Below the pieces are notes generated by a model. That model saw only the letters and a program-made list of their open reading frames with translations. It was not told the origin of the DNA and ran no database searches. A stretch of DNA of 64,000 nt, from assembly GCF_915403165.1 (NCBI RefSeq), contig NZ_OU659204.1:3658001-3722000 (forward strand), written 5' to 3'. The stretch's first letter is position 1. Each line of letters begins with the position of its first letter. Positions 15,420-55,227 of the stretch are shown one piece after another. The position numbers and the translations under genes were made by a program. The stretch is from Providencia alcalifaciens (GTDB lineage Bacteria; Pseudomonadota; Gammaproteobacteria; Enterobacterales; Enterobacteriaceae).

Positions 15420-15495
<76 letters not shown>

Positions 15496-15535
15496 ATTTG
15501 GTGGGTACTACTTCTGCTAAAACACTAAGAAAGTT

Positions 15536-15611
<76 letters not shown>

Positions 15612-15651
15612 ATTCCGAAAATAGTGCTCTAGCTAAAACATCAAGAAAATT

Positions 15652-15727
<76 letters not shown>

Positions 15728-32756: not shown

Positions 32757-34478
32757 ATGAATAATAAAATTGCTGATGTTATTTATTTCAACGGTTATAT
32801 CTATACCGCAGACAGTCAAAATAGTGTTGTCGACGCTATTGCCTTGAAAGAAGGTTATATTCTTGCAACAGGGACTTCAGATGAATTACATCAATATGTT
32901 GGCCCAGAAACCGAGAGCATCGACCTTGAAGGCAGAATGATGATGCCAGGGATCATCGATGGACATATGCACCCGTTTTGGGGCGGCATTCAGCTGTTTG
33001 GCTGCCATCTTAATTACGAATCCCTCACTATCGACCAAATTTTACAGCGCGTGCAAGATCACCTCGATAAAGATCCTCGCACGGGCGAAAACGATTGGCT
33101 AAAAGTCACTGCCTGGTTACGCCAAGGCATGTTGCCAGCCGGTATTGACATGTACCGTGAAGATATGGACAAGCTCAATACTAAGCGCCCAGTCGTCCTG
33201 TTTTCTAATGACTGCCATACCTTATTAGCCAATAGCCGCGCCCTCGAATTATTCAGGATCACCAAAGAAACCCCTGAGCCATCCGATGGCAAAATTGGTA
33301 AATATAAAAATGGCGAACTCAACGGAATTTTAGAGGATGCGCCTGCCATGCGTGCCGCAGATAGCATTCCGTCTATCCGTGATGAGCAAGCAGTTGAAGT
33401 GGCTGAGTTAGTGCAAAAAGTGCTGAATCAGCAAGGCGTCACGATGGTGATGGATGCCCGCGTTTCTGAACAGCAATTAGAGGCGTTCCACCAACTTCAA
33501 CAACGTGGCGAACTCACTTTACGCTTCCAAGCTGCACGAGAAATCACACCGGATAACACGCCAAATGTTGCCGCGGTCGCCGCTGCCGTCGATAACGCCG
33601 TAGCATTTGCTAAAAAATGGCATCAAGCTGATTGGACTCCAACACCGGGTATCGGTCTGCGTAATATCAAAATGTTCGTGGATGGCGTGTTGCAATATCC
33701 AACTATGACCGCCTCATTATTACAGCCATATCGTGTGAATAAAGGTACTGATTCAGCGCCAAATTGGGTCGAAACCAATAACTACGGCGACCTCTATTTC
33801 ACGGCTGAAATTCTGGATGAGCTGCTCGAAAAAATCGCAGCAGCCGGTTACGATCCTCACTTGCATACCGTCGGTGAAGGTGCCGTCTCTATCGTGCTGG
33901 ATGCCATTGAGAAAATGCGTGCGGCTCACCCAGAGAAAGATATCCGCCCAGGCCTTGCCCATAATGAACTGGTTGATGCCAAAGATTATGCCCGCTTTGC
34001 GCGCCTGAAAACCATTGCATGCTTATCATTCCAGTGGGCAGCACCAACGCCTGAACTGGCTGCTTTCGAGAAAAATATGCTGGGTGAAACCCGTTTCCAA
34101 CAGCTCGAACCTATCGCTAAGTTTATTGATGCGGGTGCAGTCGTTGCCTTTGGTAGCGACTGGCCAATCGATGATTTTGACGAATGGTATGATTTGAAAG
34201 TCGCCGCAACTCGCCGTGGTCGTGATATTGATGGCCAGCCAGCCCCAAGACTGGATAACGACCGTGATATGACCGTGATCGAGGTTTTACGTTCAGCAAC
34301 TATTGATTCTGCTTATGCTCAGCATCGTGAAGACGTTTTAGGATCGCTTGAGGCGGGTAAATTCGCAGATATGATCGTACTGGACCGCAATGTATTTACC
34401 ATCCCTGCGGATGATATTGAAAATGTGAAAGTGCTGCGCACCATTGTGGGCGGAAAAACAGTTCATATCGCTTCGTAG
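32757..34478 (+). CDS. YtcJ-type metal-dependent amidohydrolase
   Basis: The 573-aa protein belongs to the amidohydrolase family 3 (YtcJ/AepA-like, imidazolonepropionase-related). It opens with the small beta-sandwich segment (ADVIYFNGYIYTAD), then the metal motif GIIDGHMHPFWGG with HxH at about 70-72. Further expected ligands are in PHLHTVGEGAV (about 362), LAHNEL (about 402) and the Asp of FGSDWPIDD (about 464). The C-terminal SLEAGKFADMIVLD (about 530) is typical. The natural substrate is unknown; family members act on amides, carbamates or cyclic ureas. It may act with the preceding permease in catabolism, though a terminator lies between. No signal peptide is seen. Confidence 0.85.
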   Translation: MNNKIADVIYFNGYIYTADSQNSVVDAIALKEGYILATGTSDELHQYVGPETESIDLEGRMMMPGIIDGHMHPFWGGIQLFGCHLNYESLTIDQILQRVQDHLDKDPRTGENDWLKVTAWLRQGMLPAGIDMYREDMDKLNTKRPVVLFSNDCHTLLANSRALELFRITKETPEPSDGKIGKYKNGELNGILEDAPAMRAADSIPSIRDEQAVEVAELVQKVLNQQGVTMVMDARVSEQQLEAFHQLQQRGELTLRFQAAREITPDNTPNVAAVAAAVDNAVAFAKKWHQADWTPTPGIGLRNIKMFVDGVLQYPTMTASLLQPYRVNKGTDSAPNWVETNNYGDLYFTAEILDELLEKIAAAGYDPHLHTVGEGAVSIVLDAIEKMRAAHPEKDIRPGLAHNELVDAKDYARFARLKTIACLSFQWAAPTPELAAFEKNMLGETRFQQLEPIAKFIDAGAVVAFGSDWPIDDFDEWYDLKVAATRRGRDIDGQPAPRLDNDRDMTVIEVLRSATIDSAYAQHREDVLGSLEAGKFADMIVLDRNVFTIPADDIENVKVLRTIVGGKTVHIAS

Positions 34479-34503: not shown

Positions 34504-34535
34504 AAAGAGCCCCAATTATATTGGGGCTCTTTAGT
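34504..34535. terminator. Terminator after the amidohydrolase gene
   Basis: AAAGAGCCCCAA-TTATA-TTGGGGCTCTTT is a perfect 12-bp stem with T on one side and A on the other. It can terminate in both directions, serving the amidohydrolase gene on the plus strand. Confidence 0.88.
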
Positions 34536-34565
34536 TTGGGTGCTTAATATCCCAACCGGTAATAA

Positions 34566-34631
34566 GAAAGAAGAAAGAGTGGGGAATTAATTGTTATTAA
34601 ACTGAATTAATTCAAATTAACTTCCCCACTC
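34566..34631 (-). terminator. 3' terminator of the hok-like mRNA
   Basis: On the minus strand GAGTGGGGAA plus TTAATT pairs with AATTAATTCCCCACTC (one bulged base), followed by TTTCTTCTTTC. It begins 6 nt past the stop of the 48-codon toxin gene. A long, stable 3' end is typical of hok messages. Confidence 0.75.
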
Positions 34632-34636
34632 GATGA

Positions 34637-34783
34637 TTAATTGATTTCGTAATCCAATTTCACCTGAACGACTGTATTATCATTATCAATATTCAAATAG
34701 CTTAATCTATCCTTTATTAAAAATGAGCAACCCAGTATTGTTACGCAAATAGAAACTACAGCTATCATTGCGTACTTTGTCAT
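34637..34783 (-). CDS. Hok/Gef-family membrane toxin, 48 aa
   Basis: This 48-codon frame is too short for most gene callers. It starts MTKYAMIAVVSICVTILGCS, has one hydrophobic helix at about 5-23, then a charged junction LIKDRLSYL and a short periplasmic-type tail with VVQVKLDYEIN. Order and residues parallel Hok/Gef toxins (KAMIVALIVICIT, then TRKDLCE, then EVAVFTAYE), which depolarise the inner membrane. The usual Cys of the LCE motif is Ser here (RLSYL). AAGGAG lies two bases upstream of the ATG, so translation may depend on coupling to the overlapping upstream frame, as hok depends on mok. A terminator-ended RNA is predicted on the opposite strand across the leader. Type I toxin-antitoxin assignment rests on these features together. 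Confidence 0.8.
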   Translation of the reverse strand: MTKYAMIAVVSICVTILGCSFLIKDRLSYLNIDNDNTVVQVKLDYEIN

Positions 34784-34862
34784 TTCTCCTTGACCTCTCT
34801 TTTATTAAGAGGCACACTCCCGATTGTGTGGTTGGGAGTGTAGCCTCGTTGGTGAATATCAC
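34707..34862 (-). CDS. Possible mok-like overlapping reading frame
   Basis: An open frame on the same strand, in another phase, runs through the leader into the toxin gene and stops at 34707, 77 nt inside it. In hok systems such a frame (mok) must be translated for hok to be translated. The frame is open as far up as 34919; the exact start is not determined (a GTG near 34862 is one candidate, used for the coordinate). Its residues have no recognisable fold, as for other Mok peptides. Confidence 0.4.
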   Translation of the reverse strand: MIFTNEATLPTTQSGVCLLIKERSRRNDKVRNDSCSFYLRNNTGLLIFNKG

Positions 34863-34880
34863 TAACGGGGCTTTTTCTTT
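34824..34880 (+). ncRNA. Candidate Sok-like antisense RNA
   Basis: On the strand opposite the toxin message, TTGACC (34790-34795) and a weak CACACT (34813-34818) are spaced 17 bp apart, predicting a start near 34824. The transcript would end at a strong terminator, GCCTCGTTGGTG-AATAT-CACTAACGGGGC followed by TTTTTCTTT (34843-34880), giving about 57 nt. It is fully complementary to the leader upstream of the toxin start, the layout of sok. Start site and promoter are predictions. Confidence 0.6.
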
Positions 34881-34920
34881 CCCAGACCAAAAATAAATGC
34901 TTGAACTGAGTAAGATCAAG

Positions 34921-35213
34921 CACCCAGCAAGAGAGTAGCAAAGTTAAAATAGCGAAAATATACCTGTTTACGCTTATCTTAATGAAATATTTTTATAATA
35001 TTCAAATCTAGAATTAAATATAAATTTGAGTTTTTCATTATTATTTATCATGAAAACTATTAGTTTATAAAATAATTAATTACTCATTTATTAATCACTT
35101 TAGGATAAAGATTAATTTTACACTTTTTTTCTTTTCTCTCTTGCAAATGAAAAAAGTTCCCGTTAATATCCGCCGCGTTTTCATTCATTCAATTCACTGC
35201 GAGGAGGTTCATC
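34921..35213. other. AT-rich region upstream of the rtcB-prfH locus
   Basis: Nearly 300 bp with no gene. It should hold the rtcB-prfH promoter and the upstream end of the hok-like transcription unit. I did not recognise a sigma-54 TGGCAC-N5-TTGC element such as drives the E. coli rtcBA operon, nor a LexA box. Confidence 0.4.
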
Positions 35214-35359: not shown

Positions 35360-36493
35360 ATGGGCAATACCCTTCATTCTGTCGGTGAACACGTTAGTTA
35401 TATCGCGACAGAATCTACATGGATTGAAAGTAAAGCAATCCAACAATTACAAACAACCGCTAATTTACCCAACATGGTTTCTGTGGTCGGCATGCCTGAC
35501 TTACACCCAGGACGTGGCTATCCAATTGGCGCAGCATTTTTCTCGGTTAAACGCTTCTATCCGGCGTTAGTCGGTAATGATATTGGCTGTGGCATGAGCC
35601 TGTTCCAAACCGATATCAAGCGTGCCAAAGTTAACTTGGATAAGCTGGAAAAACAGCTATCTGAAATGACGGATCATGCGCCATTAGAGTGGTTAGATGA
35701 GCACGTTCCTGAATCCATGAAATCCCATGATTTTATGGCATCACTCAGCTCCATCGGTGGTGGTAACCATTTCGCGGAGTTTCAATCCGTCGATAAAATC
35801 ATAAACCAAGAACTGTTTGAGCAAAGCGGCCTTGATAAACAAAAATTACTGTTGCTCGTGCACAGTGGCTCGCGTGGTTTGGGGCAATCTATTCTACGCC
35901 AGCATATTGAGCAACATAGCCATAATGGGCTGGATGAACAATCTGAAGAGGCGGAAACTTACCTCAACGCACACCAAGACGCCCTACAGTTCGCACAAAT
36001 CAACCGCCAATTGATTGGGCTGCGCATGATGCAGCAAGTTAAAGCCTCTGGAGAGCAACGTTTCAGCCTCAACCATAATCTTGTTGAGCCATGCCGTATC
36101 AGCGGCATTGACGGCTGGTTACACCGTAAAGGAGCCACCCCCTCTGATAGAGGTTTTGTGGTTATCCCCGGCTCTCGCGGCGATTACAGCTATTTAGTCG
36201 CGCCGACTGCCAATGATTTGAGCTTAAATTCCCTTGCCCATGGCGCAGGGCGAAAATGGATGCGAACGGAATGCAAAGGTCGTTTATCACATAAATATAC
36301 GCCATTGCAGCTATCCCGAACCACTTTAGGCAGCCGCGTTATTTGTGCAAACAAACAATTGATTTATGAAGAAGCGCCGCAATCCTATAAATCCATTGAG
36401 ACCGTTATCGAAAGCATGGTAAACGTCGGCATCATTCAGGTTATTGCCCGTTTAGCGCCGGTGATCACTTATAAAACGAGCGGAGATTGTTAA
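35360..36493 (+). CDS. rtcB: RtcB-family RNA ligase paired with PrfH
   Basis: RtcB joins RNA 2',3'-cyclic phosphate or 3'-phosphate ends to 5'-OH ends using GTP and Mn2+. The product is 377 aa, of the shorter type found beside prfH (RtcB2). Metal ligands and active-site residues are visible: NDIGCG with D74 and C77, GGGNHF with H137, VHSGSRGLG with H168, NHN with H239, and the guanylylated histidine in SLAHGAGRKW at H294. It overlaps prfH by one base (TAATG). RtcB2-PrfH pairs have been linked to repair of ribosomes cut in the 16S decoding region; that role here is inference. The ribosome-binding site is poor. Confidence 0.93.
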   Translation: MGNTLHSVGEHVSYIATESTWIESKAIQQLQTTANLPNMVSVVGMPDLHPGRGYPIGAAFFSVKRFYPALVGNDIGCGMSLFQTDIKRAKVNLDKLEKQLSEMTDHAPLEWLDEHVPESMKSHDFMASLSSIGGGNHFAEFQSVDKIINQELFEQSGLDKQKLLLLVHSGSRGLGQSILRQHIEQHSHNGLDEQSEEAETYLNAHQDALQFAQINRQLIGLRMMQQVKASGEQRFSLNHNLVEPCRISGIDGWLHRKGATPSDRGFVVIPGSRGDYSYLVAPTANDLSLNSLAHGAGRKWMRTECKGRLSHKYTPLQLSRTTLGSRVICANKQLIYEEAPQSYKSIETVIESMVNVGIIQVIARLAPVITYKTSGDC

Positions 36494-37104
36494 TGACATT
36501 ATTACAATTTTCTTCAGCTCAAGGCCCTGATGAGTGCTGTATCGCCGTGGAAAAAGCGTTTTCCTGCTTTTTAAAAGAGGCGACTTTGTTAGATGTTCAG
36601 GTTGATGTGTTGGAATCTTTTCCCTCAAAACAGGGGCTAAAGTCAGTGCTAGTCTCCTTAGAGGGGAAACAGAGCGACCAATTGGTCAACGCATGGAGTG
36701 GAACCGTTCAATGGCAATGTCAAAGCCCACTGAGACCACGTCATAAACGTAAAAATTGGTTTATTAGCGTGATAGCATTTTCGCCTATCCACCCCTTAGA
36801 AGAGAGTGAAATCGAATATGAATTTACAAAATCTCAAGGGGCTGGTGGTCAGCATGTGAATAAAACCTGTTCCGCAGTACGTGCTAAACATATTGCAACG
36901 GGGATTAGTGTGAAAGTCCAATCAGAACGTAGCCAGCATGCGAATAAGAAGCTGGCAAAAGAGCTAATTCATTGGAAACTCAGTGAATTTCAATCTCAGC
37001 AACTGAGCACTCTAGATAAGCAGCGCCACCTTTCTCATTACCAAATTGAGCGAGGAAATGCCGCATTAGTTTTTGCTGGAAAAGAGTTTAAGCGGGTTAA
37101 CTAA
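36493..37104 (+). CDS. prfH: PrfH, GGQ-bearing release-factor homologue
   Basis: PrfH is a release-factor paralogue lacking the stop-codon-reading domain and carrying the peptidyl-tRNA hydrolysis motif. From ATG 36493 (GGAG 7 nt upstream) the product is 203 aa. The catalytic loop GAGGQHVNKT places GGQ at residues 118-120, followed by the basic helix SERSQHANKKLAKELIHWKL. It starts on the last base of rtcB stop, so the two are tightly coupled. Known model: PrfH frees the nascent chain from ribosomes damaged at the decoding centre so that RtcB can reseal the rRNA. No RF2-like SPF tripeptide is expected or seen. Confidence 0.92.
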   Translation: MTLLQFSSAQGPDECCIAVEKAFSCFLKEATLLDVQVDVLESFPSKQGLKSVLVSLEGKQSDQLVNAWSGTVQWQCQSPLRPRHKRKNWFISVIAFSPIHPLEESEIEYEFTKSQGAGGQHVNKTCSAVRAKHIATGISVKVQSERSQHANKKLAKELIHWKLSEFQSQQLSTLDKQRHLSHYQIERGNAALVFAGKEFKRVN

Positions 37105-37148: not shown

Positions 37149-37832
37149 CTAGTAGCAATACTGAGTACCAAGATAAATTTCACAATAAGTAGCATTCGTT
37201 TCAAATGCCTTTAGCATTTGGTTATCCATCGAGCTACTCTCTACCGACTCAAGTTGTGCCATTTGTTCAATCATCATCGATGCATTTTCATAGCCATTAA
37301 AACAGTCCGAAATTCGCGGCCCATTCATTTTCATTAATGTATCATTTGCAACCTCACTGAATTGAAGATATTGACCATTTAAATCATAAAACTTCTCATC
37401 CATTTCCAATTTATTATTATAAAGTGACCATACTGCTTGCTGAATTAACGGCGTTGACGATAGATTTTTTTTAGGGAAAATAGCCGATTTTTGAGGTAGT
37501 GAATCTATAATGGATTGTAATTCATTAATAAAATCCACTGCATTTTCTAAATTATCGCTATATTCTAAATCATTCATGTAGTTATCAATTTTTGTTATTG
37601 CAGCTTCATAGCTGGAATATCTTTTTTGGTTAATTCTAATATCTCTTTCCGCTTGTGAAATATATCTGTCTGTAGGCTTTTTATCTTTCGTTAAAATTGA
37701 ACCATCTCTACCAGTGAGCTCTTTTAAATCACTCAAATATTTTTTATGGTTCCCTTCATGTTTTTTAAAAGATTCTTTGTACTCTTCAAAGTTTGATTTA
37801 AATTGGTTAAATGCATTTTTTAAATTAATCAT
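37149..37832 (-). CDS. Unrecognised helical protein with a C-terminal Cys pair (1)
   Basis: I do not recognise this protein, 227 aa from ATG 37832 (AAGGA 8 nt upstream; an ATG at 37841 is too close to it). It is almost wholly predicted helical and hydrophilic, rich in Asn, Lys, Glu and Tyr (FNQFKSNFEEYKESFKKHEG), with no signal peptide or membrane helix. It ends in a short aromatic tail with two cysteines, YCEIYLGTQYCY. The gene is much more AT-rich than its neighbours, with codons to match, which suggests acquisition. The protein encoded at 38808-39587 has the same design: long helical body and a two-Cys tail. Both flank the dioxygenase gene. Possible roles include toxin, effector or structural protein; none can be assigned. 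Confidence 0.75.
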   Translation of the reverse strand: MINLKNAFNQFKSNFEEYKESFKKHEGNHKKYLSDLKELTGRDGSILTKDKKPTDRYISQAERDIRINQKRYSSYEAAITKIDNYMNDLEYSDNLENAVDFINELQSIIDSLPQKSAIFPKKNLSSTPLIQQAVWSLYNNKLEMDEKFYDLNGQYLQFSEVANDTLMKMNGPRISDCFNGYENASMMIEQMAQLESVESSSMDNQMLKAFETNATYCEIYLGTQYCY

Positions 37833-38024
37833 ATAATTCATCCTTTATTTATATTTAAATTAATAAAAATTCATTATCTTTATGCCAACCAAGATAATAG
37901 ATTTAAAATAAAGGCAGGTAGTTTAAAAAACAAAATTATTATTTATATATAAGTTGTAGTTTTATTACTATGGTAATTAGTTTACAGCCCACCCCTTTGC
38001 AGAGGCGGCATAGACGAGAAAGGG

Positions 38025-38609
38025 CTACAGTATTTTTTCAGTCAGGAACCAACCGGCAATACTTTCACGCTTTTTTTGGGTAGGTAAAACTTCATGGGGA
38101 AAATCTTCAGACATAAAAAATACCATGCGCCCTGCTAGCGGATCTAAGGTGAATAGCTCACTATCCTGCAAGTCATACATCACAATTTCGCCACCATCCC
38201 CCTGTTTCCATGATTCATTCATATATAGCACTGTGGTGATTTTACGGCGTCCTTGTCCACGGAAATTATCGACATGCTTTTTGTAGAATCCACCATTAGG
38301 ATAACGGCAAAAATGGGTTTCAAAATCCCGTAATCCAAGAAATAACTGGCCGTTAAGCGCCTGACGTAAGTTCTCCATTTTATCTAAGTAATGTACGACT
38401 GGCTCTCCCATTTCAGGTTCAAGCCACACCGTTTGGTCACCGCGGATAGTTTTATTGCCTTGCAACGTGTCTTGATGACCAATACGTGCATCTTGCAGCG
38501 TATCGGGGATACAACGTTTAATAGCCTGAATATCTGACAGGTTCAGAAAATCGTCCCACACATACCAACCCTGAGTGGAAAGTGAATCAATAAGTTTATT
38601 GATAGACAT
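38025..38609 (-). CDS. 2OG-Fe(II) dioxygenase, PHD/SM-20-like prolyl hydroxylase
   Basis: This 194-aa protein is a 2-oxoglutarate and Fe(II) dependent dioxygenase. The iron ligands are H112 and D114 in KKHVDNF and H172 in FPHEVLP; R181 in KRESIAGWF should bind 2-oxoglutarate. The stretch RRKITTVLYMNESWKQGDGG, then MYD and LAGRMVFF, resembles the bacterial relatives of the animal HIF prolyl hydroxylases, including Pseudomonas PPHD, which hydroxylates a proline of EF-Tu. EF-Tu as substrate here is inference. Base composition is nearer to the core genome than that of the two flanking genes. It is separated from both by 180-200 nt, so it is likely transcribed alone. Confidence 0.85.
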   Translation of the reverse strand: MSINKLIDSLSTQGWYVWDDFLNLSDIQAIKRCIPDTLQDARIGHQDTLQGNKTIRGDQTVWLEPEMGEPVVHYLDKMENLRQALNGQLFLGLRDFETHFCRYPNGGFYKKHVDNFRGQGRRKITTVLYMNESWKQGDGGEIVMYDLQDSELFTLDPLAGRMVFFMSEDFPHEVLPTQKKRESIAGWFLTEKIL

Positions 38610-38755
38610 GATGAATCTATAGATGGTGATTAGGTAAGATTTTATACTTGATTAGCGGAAAAAATTAAAATAAAAAACGTAAATCTTAATGATTCAATTG
38701 GCAAATCAAAGGTAAATATCTCCCTATCAAAGAATCGTCATTCTCGATTGAAAAT

Positions 38756-38779
38756 GGCGCTTAAAAATATTTAAGCGCC
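38756..38779 (-). terminator. Terminator after the 260-aa helical protein gene
   Basis: GGCGCTTAAA-AATA-TTTAAGCGCC, a perfect 10-bp stem, lies 28 nt beyond the stop on the minus strand and is followed by ATTTTC. It separates this gene from the dioxygenase gene. Confidence 0.65.
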
Positions 38780-38807
38780 AAACAAGACTAAAATTAAGGT
38801 GTTATAC

Positions 38808-39587
38808 TTAACTTAGACACGTATATGCATCAGGACAAACACTTAATGTTGGTGCAAGCATACCAAGTGAGCCGCCATTCATGTCTCTCGTAATCGCACT
38901 CTCTTTATTCACTGGCATGAAACTCGCTAATTGCTCGCTAATTATATTAACCCCAGATGATTCATTGTACTGATGAACACTCTTCGCATAATCTTGTTGT
39001 ATGTATTGCTCATCTCTCTGTAGCACTAAAATTTCTCTTTGTGCATCAATCGATGTTCTATCAATATCTTGCATAACGGTTAAGAATGCTGAATTTTCTT
39101 GATTAAAATCGCTGACAGATTTTGCAATTATATCTTTCACTTCAGGACTTAATGAATTAATTATTTTATAACTGACATTTTTTTCAGAATATGTTTCAAA
39201 ATCAAAGAACGCTAAATTTTCTATTTCTTGATAAATACTTTTTATTTCAGAATCTATTGCAGACAAATTCAGCTCATCCGTCACGCGATATTGGTTATCA
39301 TTAATTTCATTAAATGCTTGATTTATTTTTAATAGACCATTATTGGATGATTCGATAGCTAACTTTTGTTTTGCTATTTTATTATCCATTGATAATTCAA
39401 TCTTATTTAAAACACCTTTAACATATTTTTTTAATCTATCAGGAACATTATTCATAATTTCCTGATACTTCCCTCTGAATGTATCACGGGCTTTCTCACT
39501 ACGTATTAGAATATCATTACTTTGCTTTATATTTTCATTCAAGCTATCAATATTAATAAAAGCCTTACTTAATAAATTTAATTCCAT
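38808..39587 (-). CDS. Unrecognised helical protein with a C-terminal Cys pair (2)
   Basis: I do not recognise this protein. From ATG 39587 it is about 259 aa (MELNLLSKAFINIDSLNENI); a start at 39599 would add four residues. It is hydrophilic and mostly helical, with heptad-like stretches (KIAKQKLAIESSNNGLLKIN, QREILVLQRDEQYIQQDYAK), no signal peptide and no membrane helix. After about 230 a flexible Gly/Ser/Met stretch leads to LAPTLSVCPDAYTCLS with two cysteines five residues apart. The gene is strongly AT-rich. Its design parallels the protein encoded at 37149-37832, though direct sequence similarity is not obvious by eye. Confidence 0.75.
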   Translation of the reverse strand: MELNLLSKAFINIDSLNENIKQSNDILIRSEKARDTFRGKYQEIMNNVPDRLKKYVKGVLNKIELSMDNKIAKQKLAIESSNNGLLKINQAFNEINDNQYRVTDELNLSAIDSEIKSIYQEIENLAFFDFETYSEKNVSYKIINSLSPEVKDIIAKSVSDFNQENSAFLTVMQDIDRTSIDAQREILVLQRDEQYIQQDYAKSVHQYNESSGVNIISEQLASFMPVNKESAITRDMNGGSLGMLAPTLSVCPDAYTCLS

Positions 39588-39754
39588 ATCACTATCCATA
39601 TCTTAATCCTTTAATTTTCATCAAAACGAAAAATGAATAAAAATATTAAATTAGGTGAAAATAAAAAACAAATATTTAAATTATATATTTATTATATAAA
39701 GATAAAGGATAATTATTTTATATAATATAATATTTTTTGGATTTATTTTGGGTT

Positions 39755-54072: not shown

Positions 54073-54279
54073 ACAAAAAAAAACACCTGCCGAAGCAGGT
54101 GTAAATAACAATCAGGTCTACAGACGGATGGTGCCTCACTCAACGTTTCGCCCGTTCGCTGATGGTAAGAGGATTAGCTCTTGATCATCTAAATTGGACA
54201 ATAGGCACCGATAATCGGCTTTGCGTCATCCCTGGGTTTATGAAGCTAGGCTGTCATAATAAGTGGGATGAGCATCTAC
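54073..54279 (-). ncRNA. glmZ: GlmZ small RNA
   Basis: GlmZ is an Hfq-dependent sRNA that activates glmS translation and is processed by RNase E with RapZ. The minus strand from 54279 begins GTAGATGCTCAT, the 5' end of E. coli GlmZ, and shares CATAAAC...GGGATGACGCAAAGCCG, the ACGTTGAGTGA(A/G)GCACC block and the ...AGACCTG segment. It ends with a hairpin ACACCTGC-TTCG-GCAGGTGT and a T-run (54073-54102). Total about 207 nt, the E. coli length. It lies downstream of hemY, the same locus as in E. coli. Confidence 0.95.
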
Positions 54280-54290
54280 ATAATAGATAA

Positions 54291-54306
54291 TGCAGAATGC
54301 GTGCCA
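54291..54306 (-). promoter_or_regulatory. Sigma-54 promoter of glmZ
   Basis: On the minus strand TGGCACG-CATT-CTGCA matches the sigma-54 consensus TGGCACR-N4-TTGCW with one mismatch. The -12 GC is 12 nt before the predicted 5' end at 54279. Sigma-54-dependent glmY/glmZ promoters driven by GlrR are known in enterobacteria. Confidence 0.85.
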
Positions 54307-54443
54307 ACTTTTATATCTTCCCACGTTTTTCTTTTCTCACCCTGTAACTCCCCTGCTTTTAAACGATATTTTTATTTCTTACTTATTGTGATTTTTTAAC
54401 ACTGCATTCTTACTAAATCTCATTCTGTTCGATTCAGCTACTT

Positions 54444-54555
54444 TGTCTCAATTTAGAGACAGCTTAGAATACCTATTAATTTTTCTATATAAATCAATCA
54501 GTAAAATGTCTCTTTTTGACGACAAGAAAATGGGGGTTTGTATCGGATCTGCGAC
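54444..54555 (-). promoter_or_regulatory. Three GlrR (QseF) activator sites upstream of glmZ
   Basis: The GlrR motif TGTC-N10-GACA occurs exactly at 54444-54461 and 54506-54523, and with one mismatch (TGTA-N10-GACA) at 54538-54555. They lie about 165-275 bp upstream of the glmZ start, a normal place for sigma-54 activator sites. A one-mismatch IHF-like sequence AATCAATCAGTAA lies between the first two. Confidence 0.8.
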
Positions 54556-54735
54556 AAATATTTTTATTCATTAAAAACATAATGTTACAAGACCATTCAG
54601 ATAAGAACTATTCTTATTTTATTAAGAGCAATACCGAAGGTCTCGAGAATAAAGATAATAAAAAACAGATTCAAGGATAAAGATAAGAATACGGAAGGGA
54701 AAAGAATCAGGTTAGAAATAGTTAAGGCTTCAAAA

Positions 54736-54766
54736 TGCAAAAACCCCGCTCGATTGAGCGGGGTTC
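54736..54766 (-). terminator. tRNA operon terminator
   Basis: AACCCCGCTC-AATC-GAGCGGGGTT followed by TTTGC on the minus strand, 8 nt past the 3' end of tRNA-Pro. Confidence 0.92.
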
Positions 54767-54773
54767 TTTAAAT

Positions 54774-54850
54774 TGGTCGGCGAGAGAGGATTCGAACCTC
54801 CGACCCACTGGTCCCAAACCAGTTGCGCTACCAAGCTGCGCTACTCGCCG
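54774..54850 (-). tRNA. proM: tRNA-Pro(TGG)
   Basis: Full cloverleaf on the minus strand: acceptor CGGCGAG/CTCGCCG, anticodon loop with TGG, T-arm GGTTCGAATCC and encoded ACCA. Fourth and last gene of the Arg-His-Leu-Pro operon, as in E. coli argX-hisR-leuT-proM. Confidence 0.97.
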
Positions 54851-54893
54851 AAATTTAACTGCTTAAGGCAGTAACTCGACATCATTTTTTTCG

Positions 54894-54979
54894 TGGTGCG
54901 AAAGGGGGGACTTGAACCCCCACGTCCATAGGACACTAACACCTGAAGCTAGCGCGTCTACCAATTCCGCCACCCTCGC
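54894..54979 (-). tRNA. leuT: tRNA-Leu(CAG)
   Basis: Class II tRNA of 86 nt with a long variable arm; anticodon CAG in GCTTCAGGTG; encoded ACCA. Third gene of the operon. The acceptor stem has two G-U pairs (GCGAGGG with CTTTCGC). Confidence 0.97.
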
Positions 54980-54995
54980 AATATCACAAAAAAAA

Positions 54996-55072
54996 TGGGG
55001 TGGCTAATGGGACTCGAACCCACGACAACTGGAATCACAATCCAGGGCTCTACCAACTGAGCTATAGCCACC
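54996..55072 (-). tRNA. hisR: tRNA-His(GTG)
   Basis: Anticodon GTG, extra 5' G (G-1) opposite C73 and encoded CCA; almost identical to E. coli tRNA-His. Second gene of the operon. Confidence 0.97.
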
Positions 55073-55150
55073 ATAACTTCACTTATTTCAAAGTGTTGTC
55101 ATACTACTCCATACAACTTTGTTTTGCCACCGTAGCTTGTCACCTTTTGA

Positions 55151-55227
<77 letters not shown>

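What the first reader, a model, noticed from the sequence alone, without database searches (positions are those of the whole stretch)
34566..34919. Chromosomal hok/sok-like type I toxin-antitoxin locus with a 48-codon toxin
Seen: a 48-codon frame with one hydrophobic helix and a Hok-like order of motifs; an overlapping upstream frame in another phase (mok-like); a promoter-terminator unit of about 57 nt on the opposite strand over the leader (sok-like); a strong terminator at the mRNA 3' end. Known: this four-part layout defines hok/sok loci. Odd: the usual Cys of the LCE motif is Ser (RLSYL) and the ribosome-binding site is only two bases from the ATG.
Basis: partly seen in the sequence, partly recalled or inferred. 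Interest (0 to 1): 0.7.

Follow-up and report, generated by a model that had tools for sequence, protein, structure and literature searches.

The report
Hok/sok locus lacking one cysteine
This is a genuine chromosomal hok/sok self-poisoning switch of a Providencia bacterium whose toxin codes serine at one of two guarded cysteine sites and keeps, at the other, a codon of the kind that RNA editing turns into cysteine in related toxins.

Summary
The finding is real. The minus strand at about 34940-34500 carries a hok/sok type I toxin-antitoxin locus: Rfam sok match of 90.9 bits (cut-off 59), a 48-aa toxin 54% identical to an annotated Hok, a Sok promoter-like pair and terminator on the opposite strand, and an 11-bp pairing of the mRNA ends. 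The host is a Providencia related to P. alcalifaciens and P. rustigianii; a Hok frame stands at this site (beside an amidohydrolase, usually before RtcB2) in 13 of 23 genomes examined. The Cys-to-Ser change is real and shared by all five orthologues. Among 141 distinct Hok proteins gathered, position 28 is Cys in 129 and TadA-editable Tyr in 5; the rest are this Ser clade (4), one Phe, and two doubtful frames. Position 45 is Tyr in 86, Cys in 49; 84 of 86 Tyr codons lie in the TadA motif YTACGAA, the window's included. So this Hok can gain at most one periplasmic cysteine, and only by RNA editing. Expression, editing and toxicity are untested, and the stem around the edit site is weak.

The parts
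34637..34783 (-). hok-like toxin gene, 48 aa; Ser28 (AGC, 34702-34700) where most Hok proteins have Cys; Cys13 and Cys19 in the hydrophobic helix; Tyr45 coded TAC-GAA
   Evidence: frame; 54% identity to annotated Hok/Gef; codons; hydropathy, cysteine and tyrosine codons
34500..34925 (-). inferred hok mRNA, about 423 nt, from GGGTGCTTGATC to the terminator
   Evidence: 5' end of Rfam sok match, terminator, minimum-energy fold joining 5' and 3' ends; transcript not tested
34932..34940 (-). extended -10 promoter-like TGCTACTCT of the hok mRNA
   Evidence: TGnTA at the same place in 24 of the 24 loci printed (read by eye); no expression data
34898..34925 (-). 5' hairpin (tac-like; GCTTGA...TTCAAGC) that can alternatively pair with the 3' end
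   Evidence: sequence; leader alignment of 47 Providencia loci
34825..34880 (+). inferred Sok antisense RNA, about 55 nt, ending in an intrinsic terminator (34842-34872)
   Evidence: Rfam RF01794 over 34925-34775 (-), 90.9 bits; terminator; start inferred from the promoter-like pair
34790..34818 (+). Sok promoter-like pair TTGACC-17 nt-CACACT
   Evidence: TTGAC in 47 of 47 distinct Providencia leaders; the hexamer cut 17 bases further on is CAGAAT in 29, CACAAT in 10, CACACT in 5 (this clade), other in 3; not flagged by the generic scan
34794..34812 (-). hairpin CCTCTT...AGAGG just upstream of hok; in relatives its 3' arm holds a Shine-Dalgarno-like AAGAGG/AAGGAG 9-10 nt from the ATG
   Evidence: sequence and alignment; folds in the 423-nt model
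34538..34548 (-). 3' complement of the mRNA 5' end (fbi-like), ATTAAGCACCC, 11 base pairs
   Evidence: duplex -18.3 kcal/mol, 0 of 100 shuffles as good
34504..34532 (-). intrinsic terminator of the hok mRNA
34577..34631 (-). hairpin GAGTGGGG...CCCCACTC in the 3' untranslated part, length variable among orthologues, its 5' arm missing in G003
   Evidence: sequence, alignment A1
34646..34652 (-). TadA-type motif TTACGAA covering Tyr45 (YTACGAA)
   Evidence: motif from PMC12255301 (passages)

Best explanation
A chromosomal hok/sok type I toxin-antitoxin locus resident at one site in Providencia. The hok mRNA is probably made from an extended -10 promoter, folds so that its 5' end pairs with its 3' end, and is translated only after refolding; the short Sok RNA, read from the opposite strand across the leader, binds and silences it. 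If Sok runs out, the 48-aa membrane peptide is made and damages the inner membrane of its own cell. The layout is shown in sequence; the dynamics are inferred from the known hok/sok mechanism. Without a conserved mok, Sok more likely acts on the leader duplex and the hairpin upstream of hok than on a coupled leader frame (inference). In this clade the first periplasmic cysteine position is Ser in DNA, and the second is a Tyr codon in the TadA motif, so the peptide should have no periplasmic cysteine unless its mRNA is edited, and one if it is. An edited copy could then form only disulfides between molecules, as unedited HokB does, not the C29-C46 bond inside one molecule (inference).
For: Rfam sok 90.9 bits against 59. 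Toxin 54% identical over 46 aa to an annotated Hok/Gef protein; two paralogues in the same genome pass HOK_GEF (23.5 and 22.6 bits, cut-off 22). Hok frame at the same site in 13 of 23 Providencia genomes. 5'-3' pairing: 0 of 100 shuffles as good in the window, at most 5 of 100 in 47 of 52 loci, three of the 52 from other genera. TTGAC in the Sok promoter place in 47 of 47 distinct leaders. Ser form: pairwise 0-2 nonsynonymous against 1-4 synonymous changes among four full-length genes. Editable codon: 84 of 86 Tyr45 codons YTACGAA in 141 distinct Hoks, with at least 12 Tyr/Cys changes on a quick tree of 135. Against a sister Hok the window is near synonymous saturation (dS 1.6 over 46 codons), yet TTACGAA is identical. 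TadA and three tRNA-Arg (acg) genes are in the genome. HokB precedent: PMC12214031.
Against: No transcript, editing or toxicity data. Pfam does not recognise the toxin. The stem around the edit site is weak: -0.7 kcal/mol in 17 nt against -5.3 for the tRNA arm; the 16 Hok Tyr45 sites average -0.96, no clear excess over 365 TACG (-0.72) or 12 YTACGAA sites (-0.38) of the window, while 15 of 19 edited E. coli sites were predicted in a stem-loop (PMC13170351, passage). One orthologue (G003) has lost the last quarter and Tyr45; G022 has only a sub-threshold sok and a diverged frame, and nothing was seen upstream of RtcB2 in G014, so the locus is dispensable. The Sok -10-like hexamer fits the consensus less well in this clade (CACACT).
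Confidence: 0.82

Rival explanations
1. A decaying hok/sok relic: the serine and the poorer Sok -10 are steps of loss, and the peptide is weak or inactive.
For: Ser at a position that is Cys or editable Tyr in 134 of 141 Hoks; CACACT in all five Ser loci where eight of nine distinct sister leaders at the site have CACAAT; G003 cut to 36 codons; sub-threshold sok in G022 and G005; no Hok frame found at the site in 10 of 23 genomes.
Against: Four of five Ser orthologues keep the full frame with few nonsynonymous changes; promoter-like elements, 5'-3' pairing and the editable codon are kept in those four. The counts are small: one to four synonymous changes per pair, and RNA structure also constrains the gene.
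Confidence: 0.3
2. The YTACGAA signature at Tyr45 reflects something other than editing, for example an RNA structure or an overlapping site in the 3' part of hok.
For: The stem around the site is no stronger than background in the window; GAA is kept as well as TAC, and where the position is Cys the next base is still mostly G (32 of 49).
Against: Where the position is Cys the third base is free (24 TGT, 25 TGC) and the next base varies (G 32, A 10, C 5, T 2), against G after 85 of 86 Tyr codons. Other Tyr codons of the same proteins are TACG in 7 of 78, five of them in YTACGAA, the number of HokB-type sites. Tyr-Glu pairs preceded by a pyrimidine in window frames are YTACGAA in 2 of 17.
Confidence: 0.12
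3. Chance: a short hydrophobic frame next to a hairpin-rich intergenic region.
For: Pfam has no match; the generic promoter scan finds 2 sites against 3.4 expected from shuffles.
Against: Rfam 90.9 bits; best plasmid Hok match E 3e-9, 2869 records at E up to 0.01; synteny and conservation.
Confidence: 0.01

Closest known systems
hok/sok loci of plasmid R1 and of Enterobacteriaceae (Pfam HOK_GEF PF01848; Rfam sok RF01794)
   Same: Hok-type single-helix toxin, antisense Sok over the leader, 5'-3' pairing of the mRNA, terminator at the 3' end (the R1 layout is recalled and from passages of PMC8309996)
   Different: no conserved mok frame; toxin below Pfam and NCBIfam cut-offs; Ser at the first periplasmic cysteine position
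Providencia and Proteus Hok of the MTKYALIGL/MSKFAVIAF type (for example the plasmid Hok of NZ_CP126337.1, WP_284551789.1; L055)
   Same: nearly the same length, same start and helix, C-terminal SYE with TACGAA; 54% identity over 46 aa
   Different: Cys28 present; some relatives stand in tandem or on plasmids
E. coli HokB/SokB with TadA editing of codon 29 (PMC12214031)
   Same: one periplasmic position coded by a YTACGAA tyrosine that editing can turn into cysteine
   Different: in HokB the editable site is position 29 and Cys46 is coded in DNA; here position 28 is Ser and the editable site is position 45, so the bond inside one molecule is impossible; editing here is predicted, not seen

Membership tests
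hok/sok type I toxin-antitoxin | Hok-family membrane toxin | tested here: met
   54% identity over 46 aa to annotated Hok/Gef; 44% to a paralogue that passes HOK_GEF
hok/sok type I toxin-antitoxin | passes the curated HOK_GEF profile | tested here: not met
   no match in Pfam at E up to 10; NCBIfam HokA 21.1 bits, cut-off 89. A property of the profile rather than of the system; close relatives pass it
hok/sok type I toxin-antitoxin | sok RNA family, sequence and structure | tested here: met
   RF01794 90.9 bits, gathering 59, model 1-157 of 157
hok/sok type I toxin-antitoxin | antisense promoter and terminator in the leader | tested here: met
   by sequence only: TTGACC-17-CACACT (not flagged) and terminator 34842-34872; expression not tested
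hok/sok type I toxin-antitoxin | mok frame overlapping hok and coupling its translation | tested here: inconclusive
   a second frame is open here for about 70 codons, but neither phase nor start codon is conserved in the 24 Providencia loci compared; the R1-like G025 locus in the same output has one. Loci scored by Rfam as sok include members without a conserved mok, so this alone does not exclude membership
hok/sok type I toxin-antitoxin | long-range 5'-3' mRNA pairing (fbi) | tested here: met
   by computation only
hok/sok type I toxin-antitoxin | toxicity relieved by Sok; slow 3' processing of a stable mRNA | not testable with these tools
   needs expression experiments
TadA-edited mRNAs | YTACGAA motif | tested here: met
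   TTACGAA at Tyr45
TadA-edited mRNAs | anticodon-arm-like stem-loop around the site | tested here: inconclusive
   weak stem, -0.7 kcal/mol over 17 nt, near the window background
TadA-edited mRNAs | A-to-G change in cDNA | not testable with these tools
   no RNA data

The most novel reading that the evidence does not exclude
This clade holds a natural single-thiol Hok whose only periplasmic cysteine is supplied by RNA editing at codon 45: unedited peptide has none, edited peptide has one, so TadA activity would switch disulfide-linked dimers on and off. More widely, the Hok family keeps both periplasmic sites as 'Cys or editable Tyr', and editing of the second site would be an ancient, family-wide control of these toxins.
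Probability: 0.3. Interest if true: 0.72.

Novelty: new variant of a known kind. Interest (0 to 1): 0.5.

Why it matters
Editing of HokB at position 29 was shown to raise toxicity through a disulfide (PMC12214031), and that paper already says that position 46 of the E. coli Hok proteins is Cys either in DNA or by editing. Here the same either/or pattern holds for 133 of the 136 Hok proteins, among 141 distinct ones, that have a residue at that site: 49 with Cys and 84 with Tyr in the exact seven-base TadA motif (the other three are Tyr in CTACGGA, Tyr in CTACCAA, and Asp). The window's clade has lost the first site and kept the second, a natural test of what the second cysteine does alone.

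Tried and rejected
Rejected: a conserved mok gene. Rejected: sub-threshold Rfam hits around the locus (ylbH, MicC, rimP and others), each below its gathering score. Rejected: the spacing of the ribosome site as an oddity of this locus. Tried without use: RNAalifold on 47 leaders preferred a 5' arrangement that mixes the 5' hairpin with the sok region, so I claim no covariation for individual helices; the two sequence versions of the hairpin before hok differ by a register shift, not by column-wise compensation. The regex-based fold of a Sok-target hairpin missed the window and several other loci, so nothing rests on it. A first translation of downstream frames ignored strand and was redone. 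Literature: the searches for hok/sok in Providencia listed no paper on it (0 papers; 19 listed, none on it by title); the library is limited, so this is not proof of absence. The 2017 paper that first described hokB editing and a 2021 paper on Hok cysteines were not held, so I cannot say how much of the family-wide codon pattern they already contain.

Full report
What the window is. The window lies in a 3.93-Mb contig. The finding sits on the minus strand between an amidohydrolase gene (32757-34478) and an RtcB-family RNA ligase gene (35360-36493) followed by peptide chain release factor H (36487-37104).

The observation. Rfam sok (RF01794) matches 34925-34775 on the minus strand over its whole length with 90.9 bits, gathering score 59, E 5e-19. 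The 48-codon frame starts at 34783. Pfam finds nothing in it and NCBIfam's HokA model gives 21.1 bits against a cut-off of 89. Yet tblastn finds 2869 plasmid records at E up to 0.01, the best at E 3e-9 and 54% identity over 46 residues; 18 of the 20 rows listed carry a Hok name and 2 have no annotated feature. Two of these relatives score above the HOK_GEF cut-off. The frame is therefore a diverged Hok.

Relatives. sok was found in 20 of 60 genomes, the window's own included, in 3 of 37 genera. From the 72 places listed I took 56; the 16 left out are 12 of one genome of another genus (G032) and four from Providencia genomes. A protein search over the genus found Hok relatives in 18 of 24 genomes. 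The window's own genome has two more hok/sok copies, in tandem, at C1:678,008-678,819. The junction upstream of RtcB2 could be looked at in 22 of 24 genomes, and G017, where RtcB2 was not found, was looked at beside its amidohydrolase. A Hok frame is present in 13 of these 23 and was not found in 10. Of the ten, two keep a sub-threshold sok (G022 44.7 bits, G005 51.9 bits) and five have only about 270-300 bases between the two genes. In G014 no amidohydrolase was seen within the 1500 bases searched. The locus is thus an old resident of this site that has been lost repeatedly, or was gained within the genus; I did not decide between these.

RNA architecture. The mRNA would begin at GGGTGCTTGATC (34925) about six bases after TGCTACTCT; TGnTA stands there in 24 of 24 loci printed (by eye). 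The 3' part carries ATTAAGCACCC (34548-34538), which pairs with the 5' end over 11 bp. The duplex of the first 14 bases with the region after the stop codon is -18.3 kcal/mol, matched by 0 of 100 dinucleotide shuffles; of 52 loci with a readable toxin start (three from other genera) 47 are matched by at most 5 of 100. The minimum-energy fold of the 423 nt closes with this pairing. On the plus strand TTGACC, 17 bases and CACACT look like the Sok promoter. All 47 distinct Providencia leaders hold TTGAC there; the 17-base distance was how I cut them, and the hexamer at that distance is CAGAAT in 29, CACAAT in 10, CACACT in 5 (the Ser loci), and CACTAT, CGCAAT or GACAAG in one each. At the window's site the nine distinct sister leaders have CACAAT in eight and GACAAG in one. 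A terminator follows at 34842-34872.

Mok. In the window one other frame is open across hok for about 70 codons, but its starts are GTG or TTG without a well-placed ribosome site (my reading). In the sister loci printed (G007, G012, G006, G008, G011) that frame is closed about 13 bases before hok, and the longest open leader frame is in phase with hok; other clades differ again (26 loci printed, 24 of them Providencia). An R1-like locus of another genus (G025) in the same output does show an ATG after GAGG. So mok is not a conserved part here. What is kept is a hairpin just before hok whose 3' arm reads AAGAGG or AAGGAG 9-10 bases from the ATG in relatives, which may be the true ribosome site in a closed state; that is inference.

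The serine. Position 28 is AGC in G000, G003, G004, G016 and G017, one genome per species; two further database proteins, P0002 and P0003, share it. G003 is cut to 36 codons by a deletion. Among the four full-length genes, pairs differ by 0-2 nonsynonymous and 1-4 synonymous changes, with about 115 and 29 sites; this suggests purifying selection but rests on few changes.

The tyrosine. Position 45 matches HokB position 46. In each of the 16 sok loci with Tyr-Glu there, the codon and its neighbours read YTACGAA, the motif of TadA editing (PMC12255301, passages read). To see whether this is general I took Hok proteins from all loci fetched by then except L033 and L034: 258 hits, 141 distinct proteins, many of them best HOK_GEF matches (so a biased set). 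Position 45 is Tyr in 86, Cys in 49, Asp in 1 and missing in 5; 84 of 86 Tyr are YTACGAA, one is CTACGGA and one CTACCAA. Where it is Cys, the codon is TGT in 24 and TGC in 25, and the next base is G in 32, A in 10, C in 5 and T in 2, against G after 85 of 86 Tyr codons. Position 28 is Cys in 129, Tyr in 5 (all YTACGAA), Ser in 4 (this clade), Phe in 1, Lys in 1 and Ile in 1; the Lys frame looks broken, and the Ile frame (G022) is open but stands with a sub-threshold sok. The three full Ser proteins and the Phe protein all have Tyr45. Reduced to clusters at 70% likeness, 24 of 26 Tyr representatives have the motif; other Tyr codons of these proteins are TACG in 7 of 78, five of them in the full motif. 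In long frames of the window Tyr before a G is TAC in 33 of 162. On a quick tree of 135 of the 141 proteins, built without these two columns (short proteins, so poorly resolved), Cys and Tyr at position 45 change at least 12 times. I read this as selection for the possibility of a cysteine, by DNA or by editing.

What this means for the window. HokB work shows that unedited HokB joins through C46 between molecules with DsbA (PMC8309996, passages) and that edited HokB needs C14, C29 and C46, probably with an internal C29-C46 bond (PMC12214031; abstract, passages and sections 21 and 26 read). The window's Hok has the equivalent of C14 (Cys13) but, as coded, can never have both periplasmic cysteines: unedited it has none, edited it has one. 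I therefore expect a milder toxin whose activity depends on editing, or a toxin on its way out; the present data favour the first modestly. TadA (275 bits) and three tRNA-Arg genes with anticodon acg are present. Against it, the predicted stem at the site is weak and not above background: -0.7 kcal/mol here, mean -0.96 over 16 Hok sites, -0.72 over 365 TACG and -0.38 over 12 YTACGAA sites of the window, -5.3 for the tRNA arm. In E. coli the other hok mRNAs are edited at 6-40% (PMC12214031).

Verdict. The locus belongs to a known family and carries a change at a site that the family otherwise guards. The comparison exposed a family-wide editable-codon pattern, of which I saw only the E. coli part in the papers that I could read.

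Noticed in passing
G000:C1:678008-678819 (L035): Two further hok/sok copies in tandem in the same genome, with Cys at both periplasmic positions and Hok/Gef profile matches
   Followed up: partly
L093 (G007) and L094 (G012): At the same amidohydrolase-RtcB2 site two Hok frames stand in tandem, about 470 bases apart
   Followed up: no
window 35360-37104: RtcB2 (NF007153/TIGR03073) with peptide chain release factor H (TIGR03072) directly beside the toxin locus; no RtcB2 match was found in G017, which keeps hok/sok
   Followed up: partly
L135: A HokE-like protein of another genus has Phe at the first cysteine site (TLFEL) and TTACGAA at the second, so the Ser clade is not the only exception
   Followed up: no
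L123: A Hok whose Tyr at the second site is CTACCAA (followed by Gln), the only Tyr of 86 outside TACG
   Followed up: no
L053 (G022): At the window's site G022 has an open 48-codon Hok-like frame with Ile at position 28 and no residue aligned at position 45, with a sok below the Rfam cut-off
   Followed up: partly
window 34771-34774 (-): Tyr4 of the toxin is also TAC before G (TACGCA), but the seven-base motif is not met and G003 has TAT
   Followed up: yes
L098 (G011): The amidohydrolase beside hok matches in three overlapping pieces, as if its frame were interrupted
   Followed up: no
window 15420-15727: Three tRNA-Gly (gcc) genes in tandem
   Followed up: no
window 54077-55227: GlmZ small RNA next to a tRNA Pro-Leu-His-Arg cluster
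   Followed up: no
window 37149-39599: Two uncharacterised proteins (230 and 263 aa, minus strand) on either side of a 194-aa gene; no NCBIfam match for either
   Followed up: no
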